Virus record (IMG/VR): IMGVR_UViG_3300030020_000016
Span: 1-62,676 of that record
Length of the DNA: 62,676 nt
Direction: 5' to 3' (one strand)
DNA from: a virus
The stretch's first letter is position 1, and each line of letters opens with the position of its first letter. Under the pieces are notes generated by a model. That model was given only the letters and a program-made list of their open reading frames with translations, had not been told where the DNA came from and ran no database searches. Both the position numbers and the translations under genes were made by a program. Shown here piece by piece: positions 13,102 to 52,563 of this stretch.

Positions 13102-13752
13102 TTATTTTCTCCTTTTTCTCATCGGTTTTATTAAATCTGGTAACTTCCATTTTCTACTTAATCTGTGTGTTATTGATGAATATGTTAAATTATATTTTTC
13201 CGCTATTTGAATTGGGCTAAGATATATTCCTTTAATTAAAATTTTAACGCTTGATGATCTGTTTGCACATTGTTCCTTATTTGTAGACCATTTACAATTT
13301 TCTAAATAGTATCCTTTATCATTGTCAATTCTATCTATTTTTGTTTCTTTTTCTGAAAAATCGTTACTATGTTTTAAATAACTTTCATACATATCTTTTA
13401 CAAAGTTTTCAAAGACAAGCCAATCCTTACATACTTTTATTCCTCTGCCGCCATACCTTTTATATGCATGATTTTTTAAGTTTGTTGTTCTTTCTAGCAT
13501 ATCTCTCCATGTTTGATAAAATCTTGTTTTGCTTAATCCGTGAGTAGTATTTGTTTCAATCGCTCTTTCTCTTGTAAAGCAACCACAGCTTTTCGTGTCT
13601 CCATTTAATAATTCATACTGGTATCCTACAGTTTCATTTCCGCAATCACACTTACATATATAACAATAACTTCGTTTTACGTGTTTGCCAATCAGCCGGT
13701 AGGTAACAATTAACCTACCGAACCTTTCTCCTGTTAAATCTCTTGCCAACAT
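13102..13752 (-). CDS. free-standing HNH homing endonuclease (zinc-ribbon type)
   Basis: A 216-aa protein. An N-terminal zinc ribbon (CYICKCDCGN...SCGC) is followed by RFYQTWRDMLERT, YGGRGIKVC, KIDRIDNDKGYYLENCKWS and EQCANR. This is the phage HNH/AP2-linked endonuclease pattern; the C-terminal YLSPIQIAEKYNLTYSSI repeat probably binds DNA. It butts exactly against recT and the exonuclease gene, as expected of a mobile intergenic endonuclease. Homologous to 28980-29729. Confidence 0.85.
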   Translation of the reverse strand: MLARDLTGERFGRLIVTYRLIGKHVKRSYCYICKCDCGNETVGYQYELLNGDTKSCGCFTRERAIETNTTHGLSKTRFYQTWRDMLERTTNLKNHAYKRYGGRGIKVCKDWLVFENFVKDMYESYLKHSNDFSEKETKIDRIDNDKGYYLENCKWSTNKEQCANRSSSVKILIKGIYLSPIQIAEKYNLTYSSITHRLSRKWKLPDLIKPMRKRRK

Positions 13753-28979: not shown

Positions 28980-29729
28980 TTAAACTTTAAGTATCATTTC
29001 AGTAGTCAAACTGTCGTTTTTAAATCTTCCAAATAAGGTTGTATATTTTATTCCTGTTATTTTTGACCACTCAAATAATGTTTTAGATTCACCATTGTAA
29101 GTTAACCTTTTAGCACCTCTAATAGGCGTCGTTAATGCCTTTTCAGTCGACCAACCCAAACGATCTATTCTTGATTTAATCGTAGACCATTTAATCCCAG
29201 TTACCAACTCCCATTCTTTTAAATTTTTAGTTATATTTTTACAAGTTAAAGGATGGTTTGACCTACGATTGTTGCACTGTTCTTTAGCTGTTGCCCATCG
29301 ACAATTTCCCTTACAATAGTTACCATCATTATCAATTCTATCAATAGACATACCTTTTGGTTTATCTCCCATGTCTTTGTAGAAATTATCAAAAATCAAC
29401 CAACTAGAACATACTGTTATCCCACGCCCACCATAGTTATTATAATTTTTAGATTTAATATTACCGCATCTTTCTATCATCCCAACCCATACATTATAAA
29501 TATTTTTTCCACTCATGCCATGAGTTATATTTGATTTTGATGCCATATATCGGCGATAACATCCACATGAATTAGTATGGCCATCGATTAGGTGGCTTTG
29601 CTCTACGTCAATTATATTACCACACTTACACATGCATTTCCAATAACGGTGAGTACCCCTATTCGGTAGTTGTTCCATGACTGTAAGCCATGTATAAGAT
29701 TTGTTTAACAAGTTAAATTTTGCTTTCAT
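28980..29729 (-). CDS. free-standing HNH homing endonuclease (zinc-ribbon type)
   Basis: A 249-aa protein: zinc ribbon YWKCMCKCGNIID...SCGC, then NYGGRGITVCSSW, MSIDRIDNDGNYCKGNCRWA and EQCNNRR, then two repeats resembling nuclease-associated DNA-binding modules (LKEWELVTGIKWSTIKSRI; LFEWSKITGIKYTTLFGRF). ATG 29729 has AAAGG upstream; the longer frame to 29804 lacks a site. It interrupts the tail operon between NlpC/P60 and tip genes and has its own terminator. Confidence 0.85.
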   Translation of the reverse strand: MKAKFNLLNKSYTWLTVMEQLPNRGTHRYWKCMCKCGNIIDVEQSHLIDGHTNSCGCYRRYMASKSNITHGMSGKNIYNVWVGMIERCGNIKSKNYNNYGGRGITVCSSWLIFDNFYKDMGDKPKGMSIDRIDNDGNYCKGNCRWATAKEQCNNRRSNHPLTCKNITKNLKEWELVTGIKWSTIKSRIDRLGWSTEKALTTPIRGAKRLTYNGESKTLFEWSKITGIKYTTLFGRFKNDSLTTEMILKV

Positions 29730-29850
29730 AATTGTCAGCCTTTCTGCTAAAGCATCTTTTTCTGCATAAATAAAAGTGAGAAAGATTGCAGAACTCTTTA
29801 TCATGGCAAGGAGCTACCAAACCACTATCTCACATATTTATTATATCATT

Positions 29851-48940: not shown

Positions 48941-49510
48941 TCAAAGATTCATATTAATATAAGCCGCGTCTAATTCACCCTGCGTGATTCCTAAATACCT
49001 TTGAGTTACCGCAATTGACGAATGGTTAAATATTTGCATGATGTAAGCAATATTAACACCTTTTTTTAACGCCCAATAGCCAAAAGTCTTTTTAAGACCA
49101 TGAGTTCCAAAGTTTTCAGCAAATCCAATCGTTTTAGCCGCTTCGCTAAGTATTCTCCATGCAGTTTGAGAAGTAATTGGCTTGTTTTTATCTTTTTTAC
49201 CTGGGAATAAAGTTCCTCTGGTAATTCCCGAGTTTTTCAAATACGTGTCAATTGCTTCTCTACATGTTTTACAAATGATAAACTGTCTTGACTTGCCTGT
49301 TTTATGCTCGCGTATAGCTACTCTATCCGTTTTAACATCTTCAGCCGTTAATTTGAGAAGATCAGATATGCGAAGCCCTGTATTTATGCCCATTACAAAT
49401 AATAAATAATCTCGTTCGCCGTAATGCATCATCAAGTATTCTTTCATATCGTCAATTTGTTTCTTATCTTTCATTGGGCTTGTTACACATACTGAACCTT
49501 GTTTATTCAT
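48941..49510 (-). CDS. tyrosine recombinase, catalytic domain only
   Basis: A 189-aa protein. Arg I in GINTGLRISDLL, Lys in EHKTGKSRQF, then HGLKKTFGYW where Arg II is normally found (HxLRKT), His in FNHSSIAVTQ and the nucleophile Tyr in RYLGIT. The core-binding N-terminal domain is absent. A Lys at the Arg II position is unusual and could reduce activity. It lies in the late operon between TerL and the regulator, not next to an attachment-like region, so genome-multimer resolution is as likely as integration. ATG 49510 follows GAGGGTG. Confidence 0.82.
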   Translation of the reverse strand: MNKQGSVCVTSPMKDKKQIDDMKEYLMMHYGERDYLLFVMGINTGLRISDLLKLTAEDVKTDRVAIREHKTGKSRQFIICKTCREAIDTYLKNSGITRGTLFPGKKDKNKPITSQTAWRILSEAAKTIGFAENFGTHGLKKTFGYWALKKGVNIAYIMQIFNHSSIAVTQRYLGITQGELDAAYINMNL

Positions 49511-49570
49511 ATTAATCACCCTCGCTAACGTTATCTTTTAAACATATAATAACATTAGAATAGTGAGTTG

Positions 49571-52213
49571 TCAACGTTTTTCTTTCATTTTTTTCATCAT
49601 TTCTATAAATGAATTTATGCTACCATCACCTGTTATCATTTTGCCCCATTCGACGATACCTTCAGCAGCATCATCATGTTTATTTCCACCTGCTTTTTGA
49701 AAGCTCATAATTGCAAGGTAAAAATCGGGCCAGCGTTTCATCCAGTCTTTTGGCAAGTAAACATGTTTCATAACAAACGTTGCCCCAGTAAGAATACGAG
49801 CCATTTTATTTTCGGATTGGTGAAACCATGAAACGTTTATTTGTTTAGTTTTGTATTTTTCCCAGATAATCCGATCAACATTTCGAGCAAAGCCCTTACC
49901 ACCGTTATTAGATTCTATTTTGGCATGGTCAACTTTGTTTTCATAGATTCTTTTGGCTGTTTCTGGTTCCGTTATTGTCATCGGTTCTAGTGTGAAGTAA
50001 ACATCTGTTATAAATCCTTCGCCATCCTTGACGCCGCCGCAAATATTAATTAAATAATCATCGCCACTATCGGCAGTATCGCAATAAGATATACGCTTTT
50101 CAATATTATCAGGAAGTTTGTCATAGGTTAATATCTGTTCAAACAATCTTCCTTTAACGTCAACTGGTTCTTGATAATAATTTGCCCTAAAAATATTCGG
50201 GTCCATATTTTCTTTTAACGTTTCAAAATCTTTTTGCGGTAAAATCCCTGGGCAAGTAAGATTGCCGCCATATTCAACAGGTACCGCAAATTTAAACCAA
50301 TCCGGACCCATTTTACCATCCATGATACGACCGCATAAATCCTTTGTATTCCAGCGTGTATGATTGATTATATCGATTGATCCTTCCCCGCCTTTTTCAG
50401 AACGAGAGAGGAAAGTCCCTGTATACCAATTCCATATACCATCAAGCACACGCTCATTATACGATTCTTCTGCTGACTTAATTGGGTCGTCGATTATTGT
50501 GCAGTTGGACAAAAGTATTTCTCCAGCAAACATGTTGTGCGTATTTTCAACTTGGATGTCATAAACTGGCTGTTTTTCTGTACAATATCTTCTAATTTCA
50601 ACAACGGTTTCTTTTTTAATTTGTGGATTCGTTGATGGCATGCTGAACATAATGTTGCCATGTTCTCCGGGACGTTGTTTGCAGTATTTTCGTCTAGATG
50701 GTGTAGCCTTAAGTCTGTTTTCCTTGTTAGCTTCCCAACTCTCATATATTCTGTTATCGTTTCCTTTTTCCCACACGCCACGCAAGCGAAACCATCTCTT
50801 TCGAACACAACTTTTCGCATTTCTCTGTATAGTTTTGCATAACTCTTGCCATCTTTGTAACTCGGGTTCCCTGATCCAACCATGGACCTTGAGTGCACAA
50901 GATTTGAGCATTTTTTCGAGCAATAAGTCACAGAACTGTTTGCAGGATGAAACTCTGTGCCACATATCGGACATATTATGTTGTGTAATCTTCGTGGATT
51001 TACATAATTTATTTTTCGGCATTCTAACGAACAATATTTTTTTGCATGACGTTCTAATCTTTTTCCGCAAACTATACAAAAATGGCTGTTTTTGATAGCA
51101 TGATCTGCTTGAGAACATTCTAATGAGCAGTAATAGTCTACGTGTCCTCGCCTTATCGATTTGTCGTAATCGCATTTTTCTCTGACAAATTCTTTCCCGC
51201 ATCGTTTGCAAATTAATTTTACAGATTTGTTTCTTATTTTTTGATAACAGTTTCTGCACGTCAACCCTCTTCCACCTTTCGGGTTTCCACAAATAACGCA
51301 CGTTTTGTTCTTCTTGCTCTTCAATGGCATAAACTGTTTCGCCTTTTCTAAAACTGCTAACATCTCGATACGTTCCGTTTCCGGAATAAATTCGATGTTC
51401 GGGCGTGCATGTAATACTTTTTCCACCTGATGTGGTGATTTTAATAAATTCATTAGCATATGACTCCTTACTTACTTGAACTGACTCGTAAGATAGATTT
51501 TTATTTTCTATATCATATGATAACACTTTTATAGGTATGTTACAAGAACACATTAATTCTATTGGCACGTTTCCAATCTCAGTTTTTATAATGGTTCCCT
51601 CTGCTAAGCAATTTCCGCCCCTGCCAGTCAAAGTTCCTTCAAGACCTGCTCCAAGATAGTTAAAGAAACAACCGTCTAAAGCCCACTTCATAAACGAACT
51701 ATTGCCCTTTGCCACCATCGTTTTAGGAAATATGTCAGAGAAAACAATATCCGCTGGCAGGTTCTTTTTCATCATGATTCCATCACGCACAAACCGGCTC
51801 ATATCTGCTGCCAAGTCATTGTTGTATGACACGGTAATGATTTTGTTTTGGTTATCCTTGCCAAGAATCCAATCACAGAAATTTGTGAGCGTACGAGATT
51901 TACCGAAACGTGGGCTAATGTTTTGCATGAGGTTCGTATATACCCTGCCGTCAACAATTTTATCCCATTCGACTACATGATCTGGATACCATGATGGAAC
52001 GTTTGGGCTGTGGCATAAATCCCAAAACAGTTTCTTTGTTAATCTACGTTCATATAGTGCCTGTAGTGTCTCACACATCAGCCACAAGTGCCAACGGTCT
52101 GACTTGTAGAAGTCTGGCGATACCATACAGCAAAATGCCCACAAGCTTTCTCTAGCCTTGCGAATATTAATTTCACGTTGGAGTACCAGCATTCGTGCTA
52201 AATCTTGTTGCAT
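49571..52213 (-). CDS. terL: terminase large subunit interrupted by an intein
   Basis: An 880-aa precursor. N-extein: Walker A-like ISPRFGKSRT (about 99-108), IITVSYNNDLAADMSRFVRD. Intein: residues 202-570. C-extein: Walker B TIIDDPIKSAEES directly after the splice site, then nuclease motifs DTADSGDDYL, KIESNNGGKGFA and NKHDDAAEGIVEWG. After splicing the protein would be 511 aa, normal for TerL. It packages DNA with TerS (55423-56337). The intein sits exactly between the GRGGN loop and Walker B, so packaging depends on splicing. Confidence 0.92.
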   Translation of the reverse strand: MQQDLARMLVLQREINIRKARESLWAFCCMVSPDFYKSDRWHLWLMCETLQALYERRLTKKLFWDLCHSPNVPSWYPDHVVEWDKIVDGRVYTNLMQNISPRFGKSRTLTNFCDWILGKDNQNKIITVSYNNDLAADMSRFVRDGIMMKKNLPADIVFSDIFPKTMVAKGNSSFMKWALDGCFFNYLGAGLEGTLTGRGGNCLAEGTIIKTEIGNVPIELMCSCNIPIKVLSYDIENKNLSYESVQVSKESYANEFIKITTSGGKSITCTPEHRIYSGNGTYRDVSSFRKGETVYAIEEQEEQNVRYLWKPERWKRVDVQKLLSKNKKQICKINLQTMRERICQRKMRLRQIDKARTRRLLLLIRMFSSRSCYQKQPFLYSLRKKIRTSCKKILFVRMPKNKLCKSTKITQHNMSDMWHRVSSCKQFCDLLLEKMLKSCALKVHGWIREPELQRWQELCKTIQRNAKSCVRKRWFRLRGVWEKGNDNRIYESWEANKENRLKATPSRRKYCKQRPGEHGNIMFSMPSTNPQIKKETVVEIRRYCTEKQPVYDIQVENTHNMFAGEILLSNCTIIDDPIKSAEESYNERVLDGIWNWYTGTFLSRSEKGGEGSIDIINHTRWNTKDLCGRIMDGKMGPDWFKFAVPVEYGGNLTCPGILPQKDFETLKENMDPNIFRANYYQEPVDVKGRLFEQILTYDKLPDNIEKRISYCDTADSGDDYLINICGGVKDGEGFITDVYFTLEPMTITEPETAKRIYENKVDHAKIESNNGGKGFARNVDRIIWEKYKTKQINVSWFHQSENKMARILTGATFVMKHVYLPKDWMKRWPDFYLAIMSFQKAGGNKHDDAAEGIVEWGKMITGDGSINSFIEMMKKMKEKR
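50494..51330 (-). CDS. HNH homing endonuclease in +1 frame within the TerL intein
   Basis: A 278-aa product from ATG 51330 (AAAAGG about 11 nt upstream). It is read one base downstream of the TerL frame. Four treble-clef-type fingers (CVICGNPKGGRGLTCRNC; CKRCGKEF...CSLEC; CIVCGKRL...CSLEC; CPICGTEF...CSKKC) precede an HNH core: VVFERDGFACVACGKK, LRLHHLDENTANNVPENMAT, CSACHQRIH. It must be made by independent initiation or frameshifting, not by simple translation of TerL. It would cut inteinless terL and drive intein homing. The family assignment is certain from motifs; expression is inferred. Confidence 0.88.
   Translation of the reverse strand: MPLKSKKNKTCVICGNPKGGRGLTCRNCYQKIRNKSVKLICKRCGKEFVREKCDYDKSIRRGHVDYYCSLECSQADHAIKNSHFCIVCGKRLERHAKKYCSLECRKINYVNPRRLHNIICPICGTEFHPANSSVTYCSKKCSNLVHSRSMVGSGNPSYKDGKSYAKLYREMRKVVFERDGFACVACGKKETITEYMRVGKLTRKTDLRLHHLDENTANNVPENMATLCSACHQRIHKLKKKPLLKLEDIVQKNSQFMTSKLKIRTTCLLEKYFCPTAQ
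50504..51610 (-). mobile_element. intein (Hint-type) in terL, 369 codons
   Basis: It begins at Cys202 (CLAEGTIIKTEIGNVPIEL, block A), has block B TCTPEHRIYSGNGTY and ends with ETVVEIRRYC, PVYDIQVENTHNMFAGEILL and SN followed by extein Cys571. Nucleophiles Cys1 and Cys+1 and the terminal Asn are present; the penultimate residue is Ser instead of the usual His. Between the Hint halves (about residues 302-532) the in-frame translation is a Lys/Arg/Cys-rich tract of no recognisable domain, because that DNA encodes the HNH endonuclease in another frame. Confidence 0.92.
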
Positions 52214-52563
52214 TGAACTTCAAACCTTCCATCGCGCCATATTTCAGCTACGTCCTCAGTTACTTCAAATTTGTCCATATCAATTTTATGGGATATATAA
52301 AATATCTTTTCCCATTGGTCTACTCTTAAAACAGAAACCGTCAACAATCCATCTCCACGCAAGTCCGTTTTTATGTTCCAGTTTATCCAACGTATCATTT
52401 TGTCATTTGGGTGTGGAAATAATTCGCTTTCATCTTTTAAAACAGGACAATTAGACATAAGAAATCTTTTTAATGCATCGTTTAGCAGTTTTTGTTCGTC
52501 TATACGTATTTCATCGTTTAGTTGAGCCATTGTTTTACCTAAAAAGCTTTTGAGTCTAATCAT
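52198..52563 (-). CDS. hypothetical protein before TerL
   Basis: A 121-aa protein from ATG 52563 (GGAAGGTGAG site). MIRWINWNIKTDLRGDGLLT and KIFYISHKIDMDKFEVTEDV. It overlaps terL by 16 bases. No recognised family. Confidence 0.6.
   Translation of the reverse strand: MIRLKSFLGKTMAQLNDEIRIDEQKLLNDALKRFLMSNCPVLKDESELFPHPNDKMIRWINWNIKTDLRGDGLLTVSVLRVDQWEKIFYISHKIDMDKFEVTEDVAEIWRDGRFEVQCNKI

What the first reader, a model, noticed from the sequence alone, without database searches (positions are those of the whole stretch)
50494..51610. Intein whose homing endonuclease is encoded in a different reading frame of the same DNA
Seen: the TerL frame contains intact Hint N- and C-terminal blocks joined by an in-frame Lys/Arg-rich tract with no domain. 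Read one base later, the same DNA encodes an HNH endonuclease with four zinc fingers and all HNH residues, with its own ATG at 51330. Known: inteins usually carry the endonuclease in frame; fractured loci have a free-standing endonuclease between split intein halves. Here the intein is unsplit and the endonuclease is nested out of frame. This lets splicing and endonuclease production evolve and be dosed separately.
Basis: partly seen in the sequence, partly recalled or inferred. Interest (0 to 1): 0.92.

Follow-up and report, generated by a model that had tools for sequence, protein, structure and literature searches.

The report
Intein with endonuclease in second frame
A phage DNA-packaging gene carries a self-removing protein insert whose DNA, read one base over, also encodes the DNA-cutting enzyme that probably spreads the insert, and dozens of distant phages turn out to use the same double coding, so far annotated only as 'terminase' or 'helicase'.

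Summary
The minus-strand TerL gene (52213..49571) contains a 369-aa Hint intein (51610..50504). Its middle 227 codons are open but disordered in the TerL frame. One base over, the same DNA encodes a four-zinc-finger HNH endonuclease (51459..50494). The likely start is ATG 51459/51453 behind a TAAGGAG Shine-Dalgarno, not the proposed 51330.
This is no artefact. The same layout occurs in isolate phages Clown (Gordonia) and S-EIVl (Synechococcus) and, with an unrelated EDxHD/Vsr-like endonuclease, in helicase and clamp-loader inteins of Vibrio, Pseudomonas and Corynebacterium phages and many IMG/VR contigs. I count 46 nested loci distinct at 90%, all host +1; one LAGLIDADG case is +2. In the 41 loci of the main test, shuffling synonymous endonuclease codons predicts 492 host-frame stops; none is seen. 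In-frame, fractured and most free-standing endonucleases show no such depletion. Substitutions concentrate at the endonuclease wobble position. Nested starts are enriched for Shine-Dalgarno sequences.
Best reading: a mobile intein that splices in one frame and independently translates its homing endonuclease from the other. Splicing and cutting are inferred. The nearest published case (ShiLan domain, 2025) lacks a splicing domain. I found no report of this layout in an intein.

The parts
49571..52213 (-). terminase large subunit (TerL) precursor gene, 880 aa, one open frame through the intein
   Evidence: PHROG 30251 E=1.7e-103, TIGR01630 E=9.7e-19
51611..52213 (-). N-extein (ATPase domain up to GRGGN)
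   Evidence: alignment to intein-free TerL of Geobacillus phage GBK2
51314..51610 (-). Hint N-terminal part (intein residues 1-99; Cys1, TPEH block B)
   Evidence: AF2 pLDDT about 80-95; Foldseek to Mtu RecA intein 2in0 E=3.9e-7, 1.4 A over 99 columns
50633..51313 (-). in-frame Lys/Arg-rich linker tract (intein residues 100-326), disordered; the same DNA carries the zinc-finger/HNH coding region in the other frame
   Evidence: no Pfam match, 26% K/R, AF2 pLDDT <50 at 100-326
50504..50632 (-). Hint C-terminal part (intein residues 327-369; block F, terminal Asn; penultimate residue Ser, not His)
   Evidence: TIGR01443 E=1.5e-4; AF2 pLDDT 84-94
49571..50503 (-). C-extein beginning C-TIIDDP (Walker B) plus nuclease domain
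50494..51459 (-). nested HNH endonuclease gene in TerL +1 frame, 321 aa (319 aa from ATG 51453; 278 aa from ATG 51330); TAG stop 7 nt past the intein end
51464..51470 (-). Shine-Dalgarno-like TAAGGAG, 4 nt before ATG 51459 and 10 nt before ATG 51453
50908..51300 (-). four zinc-finger (CxxC...CxxC/CxxxC) pairs of the nested endonuclease
50620..50784 (-). HNH core of the nested endonuclease (H253 H254 ... N266 ... H275)
   Evidence: PF01844 residues 226-280; catalytic His and Cys invariant in A1 and A3
50462..50462 (.). sharp recombination edge against contig IMGVR_UViG_3300050034_000142, 42 bp from the intein's C-side boundary
   Evidence: 40 mismatches in the C-extein up to 50462, none from there to 54096

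Best explanation
This is a mobile intein that is 'overprinted'. In the TerL frame the DNA encodes a full-length cis-splicing Hint intein at the Walker B motif of TerL, with a long disordered linker in the usual endonuclease position. In the +1 frame of the linker, and overlapping both Hint parts, lies a separately translated zinc-finger HNH homing endonuclease with its own Shine-Dalgarno and start. The endonuclease would cut intein-free terL alleles and drive homing; Hint would excise the intein so that TerL works. Selection acts on the endonuclease amino acids in one frame and mainly on absence of stops in the other. Shown: the layout, its conservation, stop avoidance, selection on the endonuclease frame, Shine-Dalgarno enrichment. 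Inferred: internal initiation, splicing, cutting, homing.
For: Layout in isolates Clown and S-EIVl and IMG/VR contigs, always host +1; the same layout with EDxHD endonucleases in helicase and clamp-loader inteins, including isolates MR14, CP-T1, phi673 and Vibrio phages; 46 non-redundant loci. Host-frame stops 0 against 492 expected in 41 loci; no depletion in in-frame, fractured and most free-standing controls. Substitutions fall on the endonuclease wobble position: 19/8/56, 21/21/64, 10/12/42 for positions 1/2/3. SD >=5 nt before the nearest nested ATG in 13/41 loci against 23/678 control ATGs, p=9e-9. AF2: Hint at residues 1-99 and 327-369, disorder between, matching solved inteins. Excising the insert gives a gapless fit to intein-free GBK2 TerL across the site. 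Intein DNA 100% identical in two contigs with diverged flanks, one with a recombination edge 42 bp away.
Against: No experiment on translation, splicing or cutting. The penultimate intein residue is Ser instead of His. The Shine-Dalgarno is clear in only about a third to a half of loci. The HNH model is of moderate confidence (pLDDT 69.6) with no significant PDB fold match. No intein-free close relative was found to show homing directly.
Confidence: 0.85

Rival explanations
1. The endonuclease is not independently initiated but made by +1 ribosomal frameshifting out of the TerL/Hint-N frame, giving a TerL-HintN-endonuclease fusion.
For: The endonuclease is host +1 in all HNH and EDxHD nested loci, and its open frame often starts inside Hint N.
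Against: SD plus ATG at the nested start is enriched about 13-fold over control ATGs, with consensus SDs such as AAGGAGGT-6-ATG in L052 and TAAGGAG in the window; FoX3 has the other phase, +2; in fractured loci the same kind of endonuclease is a separate gene. Slippery sequences were not systematically searched.
Confidence: 0.08
2. Artefact: a pair of sequencing or assembly indels, or a very recent double frameshift, displaced an ordinary in-frame Hint-HNH-Hint intein.
For: Ordinary in-frame inteins exist, e.g. Gaia TerL with LAGLIDADG and L093/L096/L097 with EDxHD.
Against: Two further contigs have the identical intein; isolate phages of Actinobacteria, Cyanobacteria and Proteobacteria share the layout; 0 of 492 expected stops requires long-standing selection.
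Confidence: 0.01
3. A ShiLan-like non-splicing insertion: the in-frame peptide stays in TerL and only the HNH matters.
For: ShiLan elements hide an HNH out of frame in an in-frame insertion (PMC11855218); L031 and L049 here look like that.
Against: The window has complete Hint N and C parts by sequence, profile and fold; ShiLan insertions have none and use another phase. The insert sits directly at Walker B of an essential ATPase, where retention would be expected to abolish function.
Confidence: 0.02
4. The endonuclease frame is a decaying passenger: a dead HEG whose open frame is fortuitous, leaving a mini-intein with a long linker.
For: Homing endonucleases commonly decay after fixation.
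Against: Cys pairs and HNH residues kept; substitutions spare endonuclease positions 1 and 2 in close pairs of relatives; identical intein in diverged flanks suggests recent mobility. Decay in this particular phage cannot be excluded without an assay.
Confidence: 0.04

Closest known systems
ShiLan domain and Pacc40 gp60 insertion (mycobacteriophage methylases; Arsenault, Gosselin and Gogarten 2025, PMC11855218)
   Same: HNH endonuclease hidden out of frame inside an insertion that is open in the host frame
   Different: No Hint/splicing domain, thought to remain in the protein, proposed leaderless GTG start, third frame (+2). The window element has a complete Hint, is host +1 and has an SD-preceded ATG.
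Inteins with an in-frame homing endonuclease (e.g. mycobacteriophage Gaia TerL1-e, PMC5050341; checked here, in-frame LAGLIDADG)
   Same: Hint halves around an endonuclease at the Walker B site of TerL, one open precursor frame
   Different: Endonuclease is in frame and released as part of the intein; here it is a separate reading frame.
Fractured genes with split inteins and free-standing EDxHD endonucleases (Dassa et al. 2009, cited in PMC3229294; paper not held, content from own knowledge)
   Same: Endonuclease gene lies between the two intein halves with its own start; the EDxHD family is shared by many loci found here
   Different: Fractured loci have two host genes and trans-splicing; here the host frame stays open and splicing is in cis. 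L086, L089 and L056 look like the transition.
Phage HNH homing endonucleases of group I introns
   Same: HNH family endonuclease nested in a self-removing element
   Different: No intron found by Rfam; removal is at protein level.

Membership tests
Intein (Hint protein-splicing element) | Hint blocks with N-terminal nucleophile Cys1, block B TxxH, C-terminal Asn and +1 nucleophile | tested here: met
   T69, H72, N369 invariant, Cys +1
Intein (Hint protein-splicing element) | penultimate His before the terminal Asn (common, not universal) | tested here: not met
   LLSN|C: Ser at that place; S-EIVl and L018 have Leu
Intein (Hint protein-splicing element) | Hint fold | tested here: met
   AF2 pLDDT 80-95 in residues 1-99 and 327-369; Foldseek 2in0 E=3.9e-7, rmsd 1.4 A
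Intein (Hint protein-splicing element) | precise in-frame insertion into a conserved host protein | tested here: met
   Excised TerL aligns to GBK2 TerL without a gap at the junction
Intein (Hint protein-splicing element) | actual protein splicing | not testable with these tools
   needs expression of the precursor
HNH homing endonuclease | HNH motif with Zn ligands | tested here: met
   PF01844 E=3e-4 (bits 21.2, just under the curated 21.4), PHROG 1271 E=2e-33, HH/N/H and Cys conserved
HNH homing endonuclease | cuts the empty host site and promotes homing | not testable with these tools
   only indirect: identical intein in diverged flanks, breakpoint 42 bp from the intein
ShiLan-type hidden-HNH insertion | no splicing domain in the host frame | tested here: not met
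   Hint present
Fractured gene / split intein | host gene and intein broken into two ORFs around a free-standing endonuclease | tested here: not met
   TerL frame unbroken in the window; met in L086, L089 and, by one stop, L056
Group I intron | intron RNA core | tested here: not met
   no Rfam match at E<=1 in 49400-52400

The most novel reading that the evidence does not exclude
Overprinted inteins are a general, previously unrecognised class in phages: unrelated endonuclease families (HNH, EDxHD, once LAGLIDADG) independently occupy a second frame of a cis-splicing intein, mostly in the one phase where every host-frame stop can be removed by a synonymous T-to-C change. They are the evolutionary bridge from a mini-intein invaded by an autonomous endonuclease gene to fractured genes with split inteins: one stop in the linker turns the one into the other.
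Probability: 0.6. Interest if true: 0.92.

Novelty: new variant of a known kind. Interest (0 to 1): 0.88.

Why it matters
The textbook intein carries its homing endonuclease as a domain of the same polypeptide. Here more than 40 distinct phage inteins instead carry it as a separate gene in another frame, hidden under annotations such as 'helicase' or 'terminase'. Endonuclease dose and splicing can then be controlled and evolve apart, inteins scored as lacking an endonuclease may be active mobile elements, and intein surveys that read only the host frame miss them. The set gives a strong natural example of long dual coding with one frame constrained in amino acids and the other mainly in stops, explains the phase preference, and offers a route to split inteins and fractured genes, whose origin can be tested on loci such as L056 (one stop) against L086/L089.

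Tried and rejected
(1) Single-frame ancestor disturbed by indels: rejected by relatives. (2) Group I intron: no Rfam match. (3) ATG 51330 as the only start: an upstream SD-led pair of ATGs is better. (4) 'Always +1': rejected by FoX3, a LAGLIDADG_2 nested at +2. (5) Gaia TerL1-e, with known splicing, as an experimental proxy: it is an ordinary in-frame LAGLIDADG intein. (6) An intein-free close relative to show homing directly: none found; only distant GBK2. (7) PDB fold search with the HNH model: no significant match, as expected for a string of small zinc fingers. (8) FoX3 LAGLIDADG scan for more cases: only FoX3 itself. (9) Sidste head-morphogenesis intein: its 140-aa alternate ORF has no domain, not counted. 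(10) Literature for an out-of-frame endonuclease in a Hint intein: nine searches of the held PMC library, no report; subscription papers and bioRxiv are not covered, and Dassa 2009 was not held. Caveats: the EDxHD loci come mostly from one scan with one query and are related by descent; the count of 46 is of loci, not independent origins; three of the 46 (L062, L068, L072) are cut by contig ends, so only one intein half was seen; the SD test used the nearest ATG without selecting on SD.

Full report
OBSERVATION. The window is a 62,676-bp virus record. On the minus strand the TerL gene (52213..49571) is open for 880 codons. It contains a Hint intein from Cys1 (51610) to Asn369 (50504), followed by Cys of the C-extein; profiles PF14890, TIGR01445 and TIGR01443 match. 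The next frame is open from ATG 51459 to a TAG at 50494 and encodes four zinc-finger pairs and an HNH core. No Rfam intron is present. Cutting the 369 codons out gives a protein that aligns with the intein-free TerL of Geobacillus phage GBK2 without a gap at the junction, directly before the Walker B motif.

THE TWO PRODUCTS. AlphaFold2 on the intein with seven homologues gives high confidence for residues 1-99 and 327-369 and none (pLDDT <50) for residues 100-326. The confident part matches the Mtu RecA intein splicing domain (2in0, E=3.9e-7, 1.4 A over 99 columns). So the in-frame product looks like a mini-intein with a disordered linker. The linker DNA is where the other frame encodes the zinc fingers and HNH. 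The nested protein is modelled with moderate confidence (69.6), ordered from about residue 48 counted from ATG 51453.

NOT UNIQUE AND NOT AN ARTEFACT. A tblastn of the nested HNH found the TerL genes of Gordonia phage Clown and Synechococcus phage S-EIVl. In both, an annotated single CDS holds the Hint parts and the HNH lies in the +1 frame. A profile scan of IMG/VR gave more TerL or TerL-like inteins with the same layout: L016, L018, L019, L022, L023, L026/L027. One weak match, L005, was a clamp-loader intein with a different endonuclease, of the EDxHD/Vsr-like (PF04480) type, also at +1. A scan with its relative from L014 returned 48 loci, nearly all Hint inteins in SF2 helicases or DnaX-like clamp loaders, with the endonuclease at +1. 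The isolates Pseudomonas MR14, Vibrio CP-T1, 1.088.O, 1.194.O, 159E43-1b and K391, and Corynebacterium phi673 are the same. Collapsed at 90% identity there are 46 nested loci, 9 HNH and 37 EDxHD. Where the junction could be read, the EDxHD inteins sit at Walker B, DE|C...HN|CH(H) in helicases and clamp loaders, and the TerL inteins closest to the window's sit before IIDDP.

SELECTION. Shuffling synonymous codons of the endonuclease frame predicts 492 host-frame stops over 41 loci; none is present (window intein: 0 against 15.2 +/- 2.6). The third frame is as expected. Among controls, the EDxHD endonucleases that are in frame (36 against 35.9; 37 against 34.6; 32 against 32.7) or in fractured genes (13 against 16.0; 24 against 22.1) show no depletion, nor do most free-standing ones (51 against 51.4, 45 against 42.1); a few are mildly low (L038 4 against 8.0, L045 20 against 26.3, L020 2 against 4.9). 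In close pairs, substitutions fall on the endonuclease wobble position, which is the first codon position of the host frame: 19/8/56 (L009/L018), 21/21/64 (L065/L069), 10/12/42 (L077/L080); host-tract identity is correspondingly lower than endonuclease identity (0.67 against 0.90 for L009/L018). The endonuclease is therefore the conserved protein, and the host frame is held mainly to be open.

WHY +1. This is my inference from the genetic code. In this phase a host-frame stop needs an endonuclease codon ending in T before AA, AG or GA; every NNT codon has a synonymous NNC, so all such stops are removable. In the +2 phase, Met followed by Ile, Met, Thr, Asn or Lys forces a stop; the endonucleases here have on average 4.3 such pairs, and 62 of 63 have at least one. 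The three +2 elements seen have none: FoX3 LAGLIDADG and the two ShiLan-like methylase insertions L031 and L049.

EXPRESSION. The nearest ATG before the first zinc finger has a >=5-nt Shine-Dalgarno at 4-11 nt in 13 of 41 loci, against 23 of 678 control ATGs (p=9e-9), for example AAGGAGGT-6-ATG in L052. In the window TAAGGAG lies 4 and 10 nt before ATGs 51459 and 51453. Independent internal initiation is the simplest reading. Frameshifting is not excluded by sequence alone.

MOBILITY. The intein DNA is identical in two other contigs (0 of 1107). In IMGVR_UViG_3300050034_000142 the C-extein carries 40 mismatches that stop at 50462, 42 bp from the intein, with none from there to 54096. In IMGVR_UViG_3300028909_000371 the whole TerL gene is identical while a downstream segment is diverged. 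This fits recent recombination at or near the intein, as homing would give, but one breakpoint is suggestive only.

EVOLUTION. L056, a clamp loader, has a single stop in the linker (1 against 16.6 expected), splitting the host frame. In L086 and L089, helicase-like genes, the two intein halves are separate ORFs in one register, with the endonuclease still at +1 and stop avoidance gone. In the EDxHD tree the fractured pair groups with a nested locus (91/89 support) and L056 groups among nested, mostly clamp-loader loci; the in-frame EDxHD inteins are far outside. So fractured genes, at least these, probably arose from overprinted inteins. The tree is poorly resolved in places.

COMPARISON. The ShiLan domain (PMC11855218) is the nearest published phenomenon: an out-of-frame HNH in an open insertion, but with no Hint and no splicing. 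In-frame intein endonucleases and fractured genes are the other neighbours. I found no paper describing an endonuclease in a second frame of a Hint intein in the held PMC library, which is incomplete. I therefore call it a new variant of a known kind, with a widespread and testable signature.

Noticed in passing
L106 1680-4046 (Xanthomonas phage FoX3 helicase): Helicase intein with a LAGLIDADG_2 endonuclease ORF (2069-2866) nested at host +2; annotated only as putative DNA helicase.
   Followed up: yes
L031 1646-4228 and L049 2216-3793: DNA methylases of a phage contig and of a Woesearchaeota MAG contig with a non-Hint insertion hiding an HNH at host +2: ShiLan-like elements outside mycobacteriophages.
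   Followed up: partly
L056, L086, L089/L090: Split or fractured versions of the nested EDxHD inteins, host halves in one register with the endonuclease at +1.
   Followed up: partly
L082 1245-4880: One helicase gene with two inteins, an in-frame LAGLIDADG one and a nested out-of-frame EDxHD one.
   Followed up: no
L014 3-2495: A DNA polymerase A-like gene that appears to carry an in-frame intein, directly upstream of the clamp-loader gene with the nested one.
   Followed up: no
L107 1871-4503 (Bacillus phage G gp221-gp223): Helicase gene split at the Walker B intein site, with small ORF gp222 between the halves: looks like a fractured gene.
   Followed up: no
window 13102-13752 and 28980-29804, minus strand: Two ORFs that by eye look like free-standing HNH-type endonucleases; not searched against families.
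   Followed up: no
L046 2824-3471 (SAR202 MAG contig): Free-standing relative of the nested HNH a short way upstream of an intein-free TerL gene; possible picture of the ancestral, non-nested state.
   Followed up: partly
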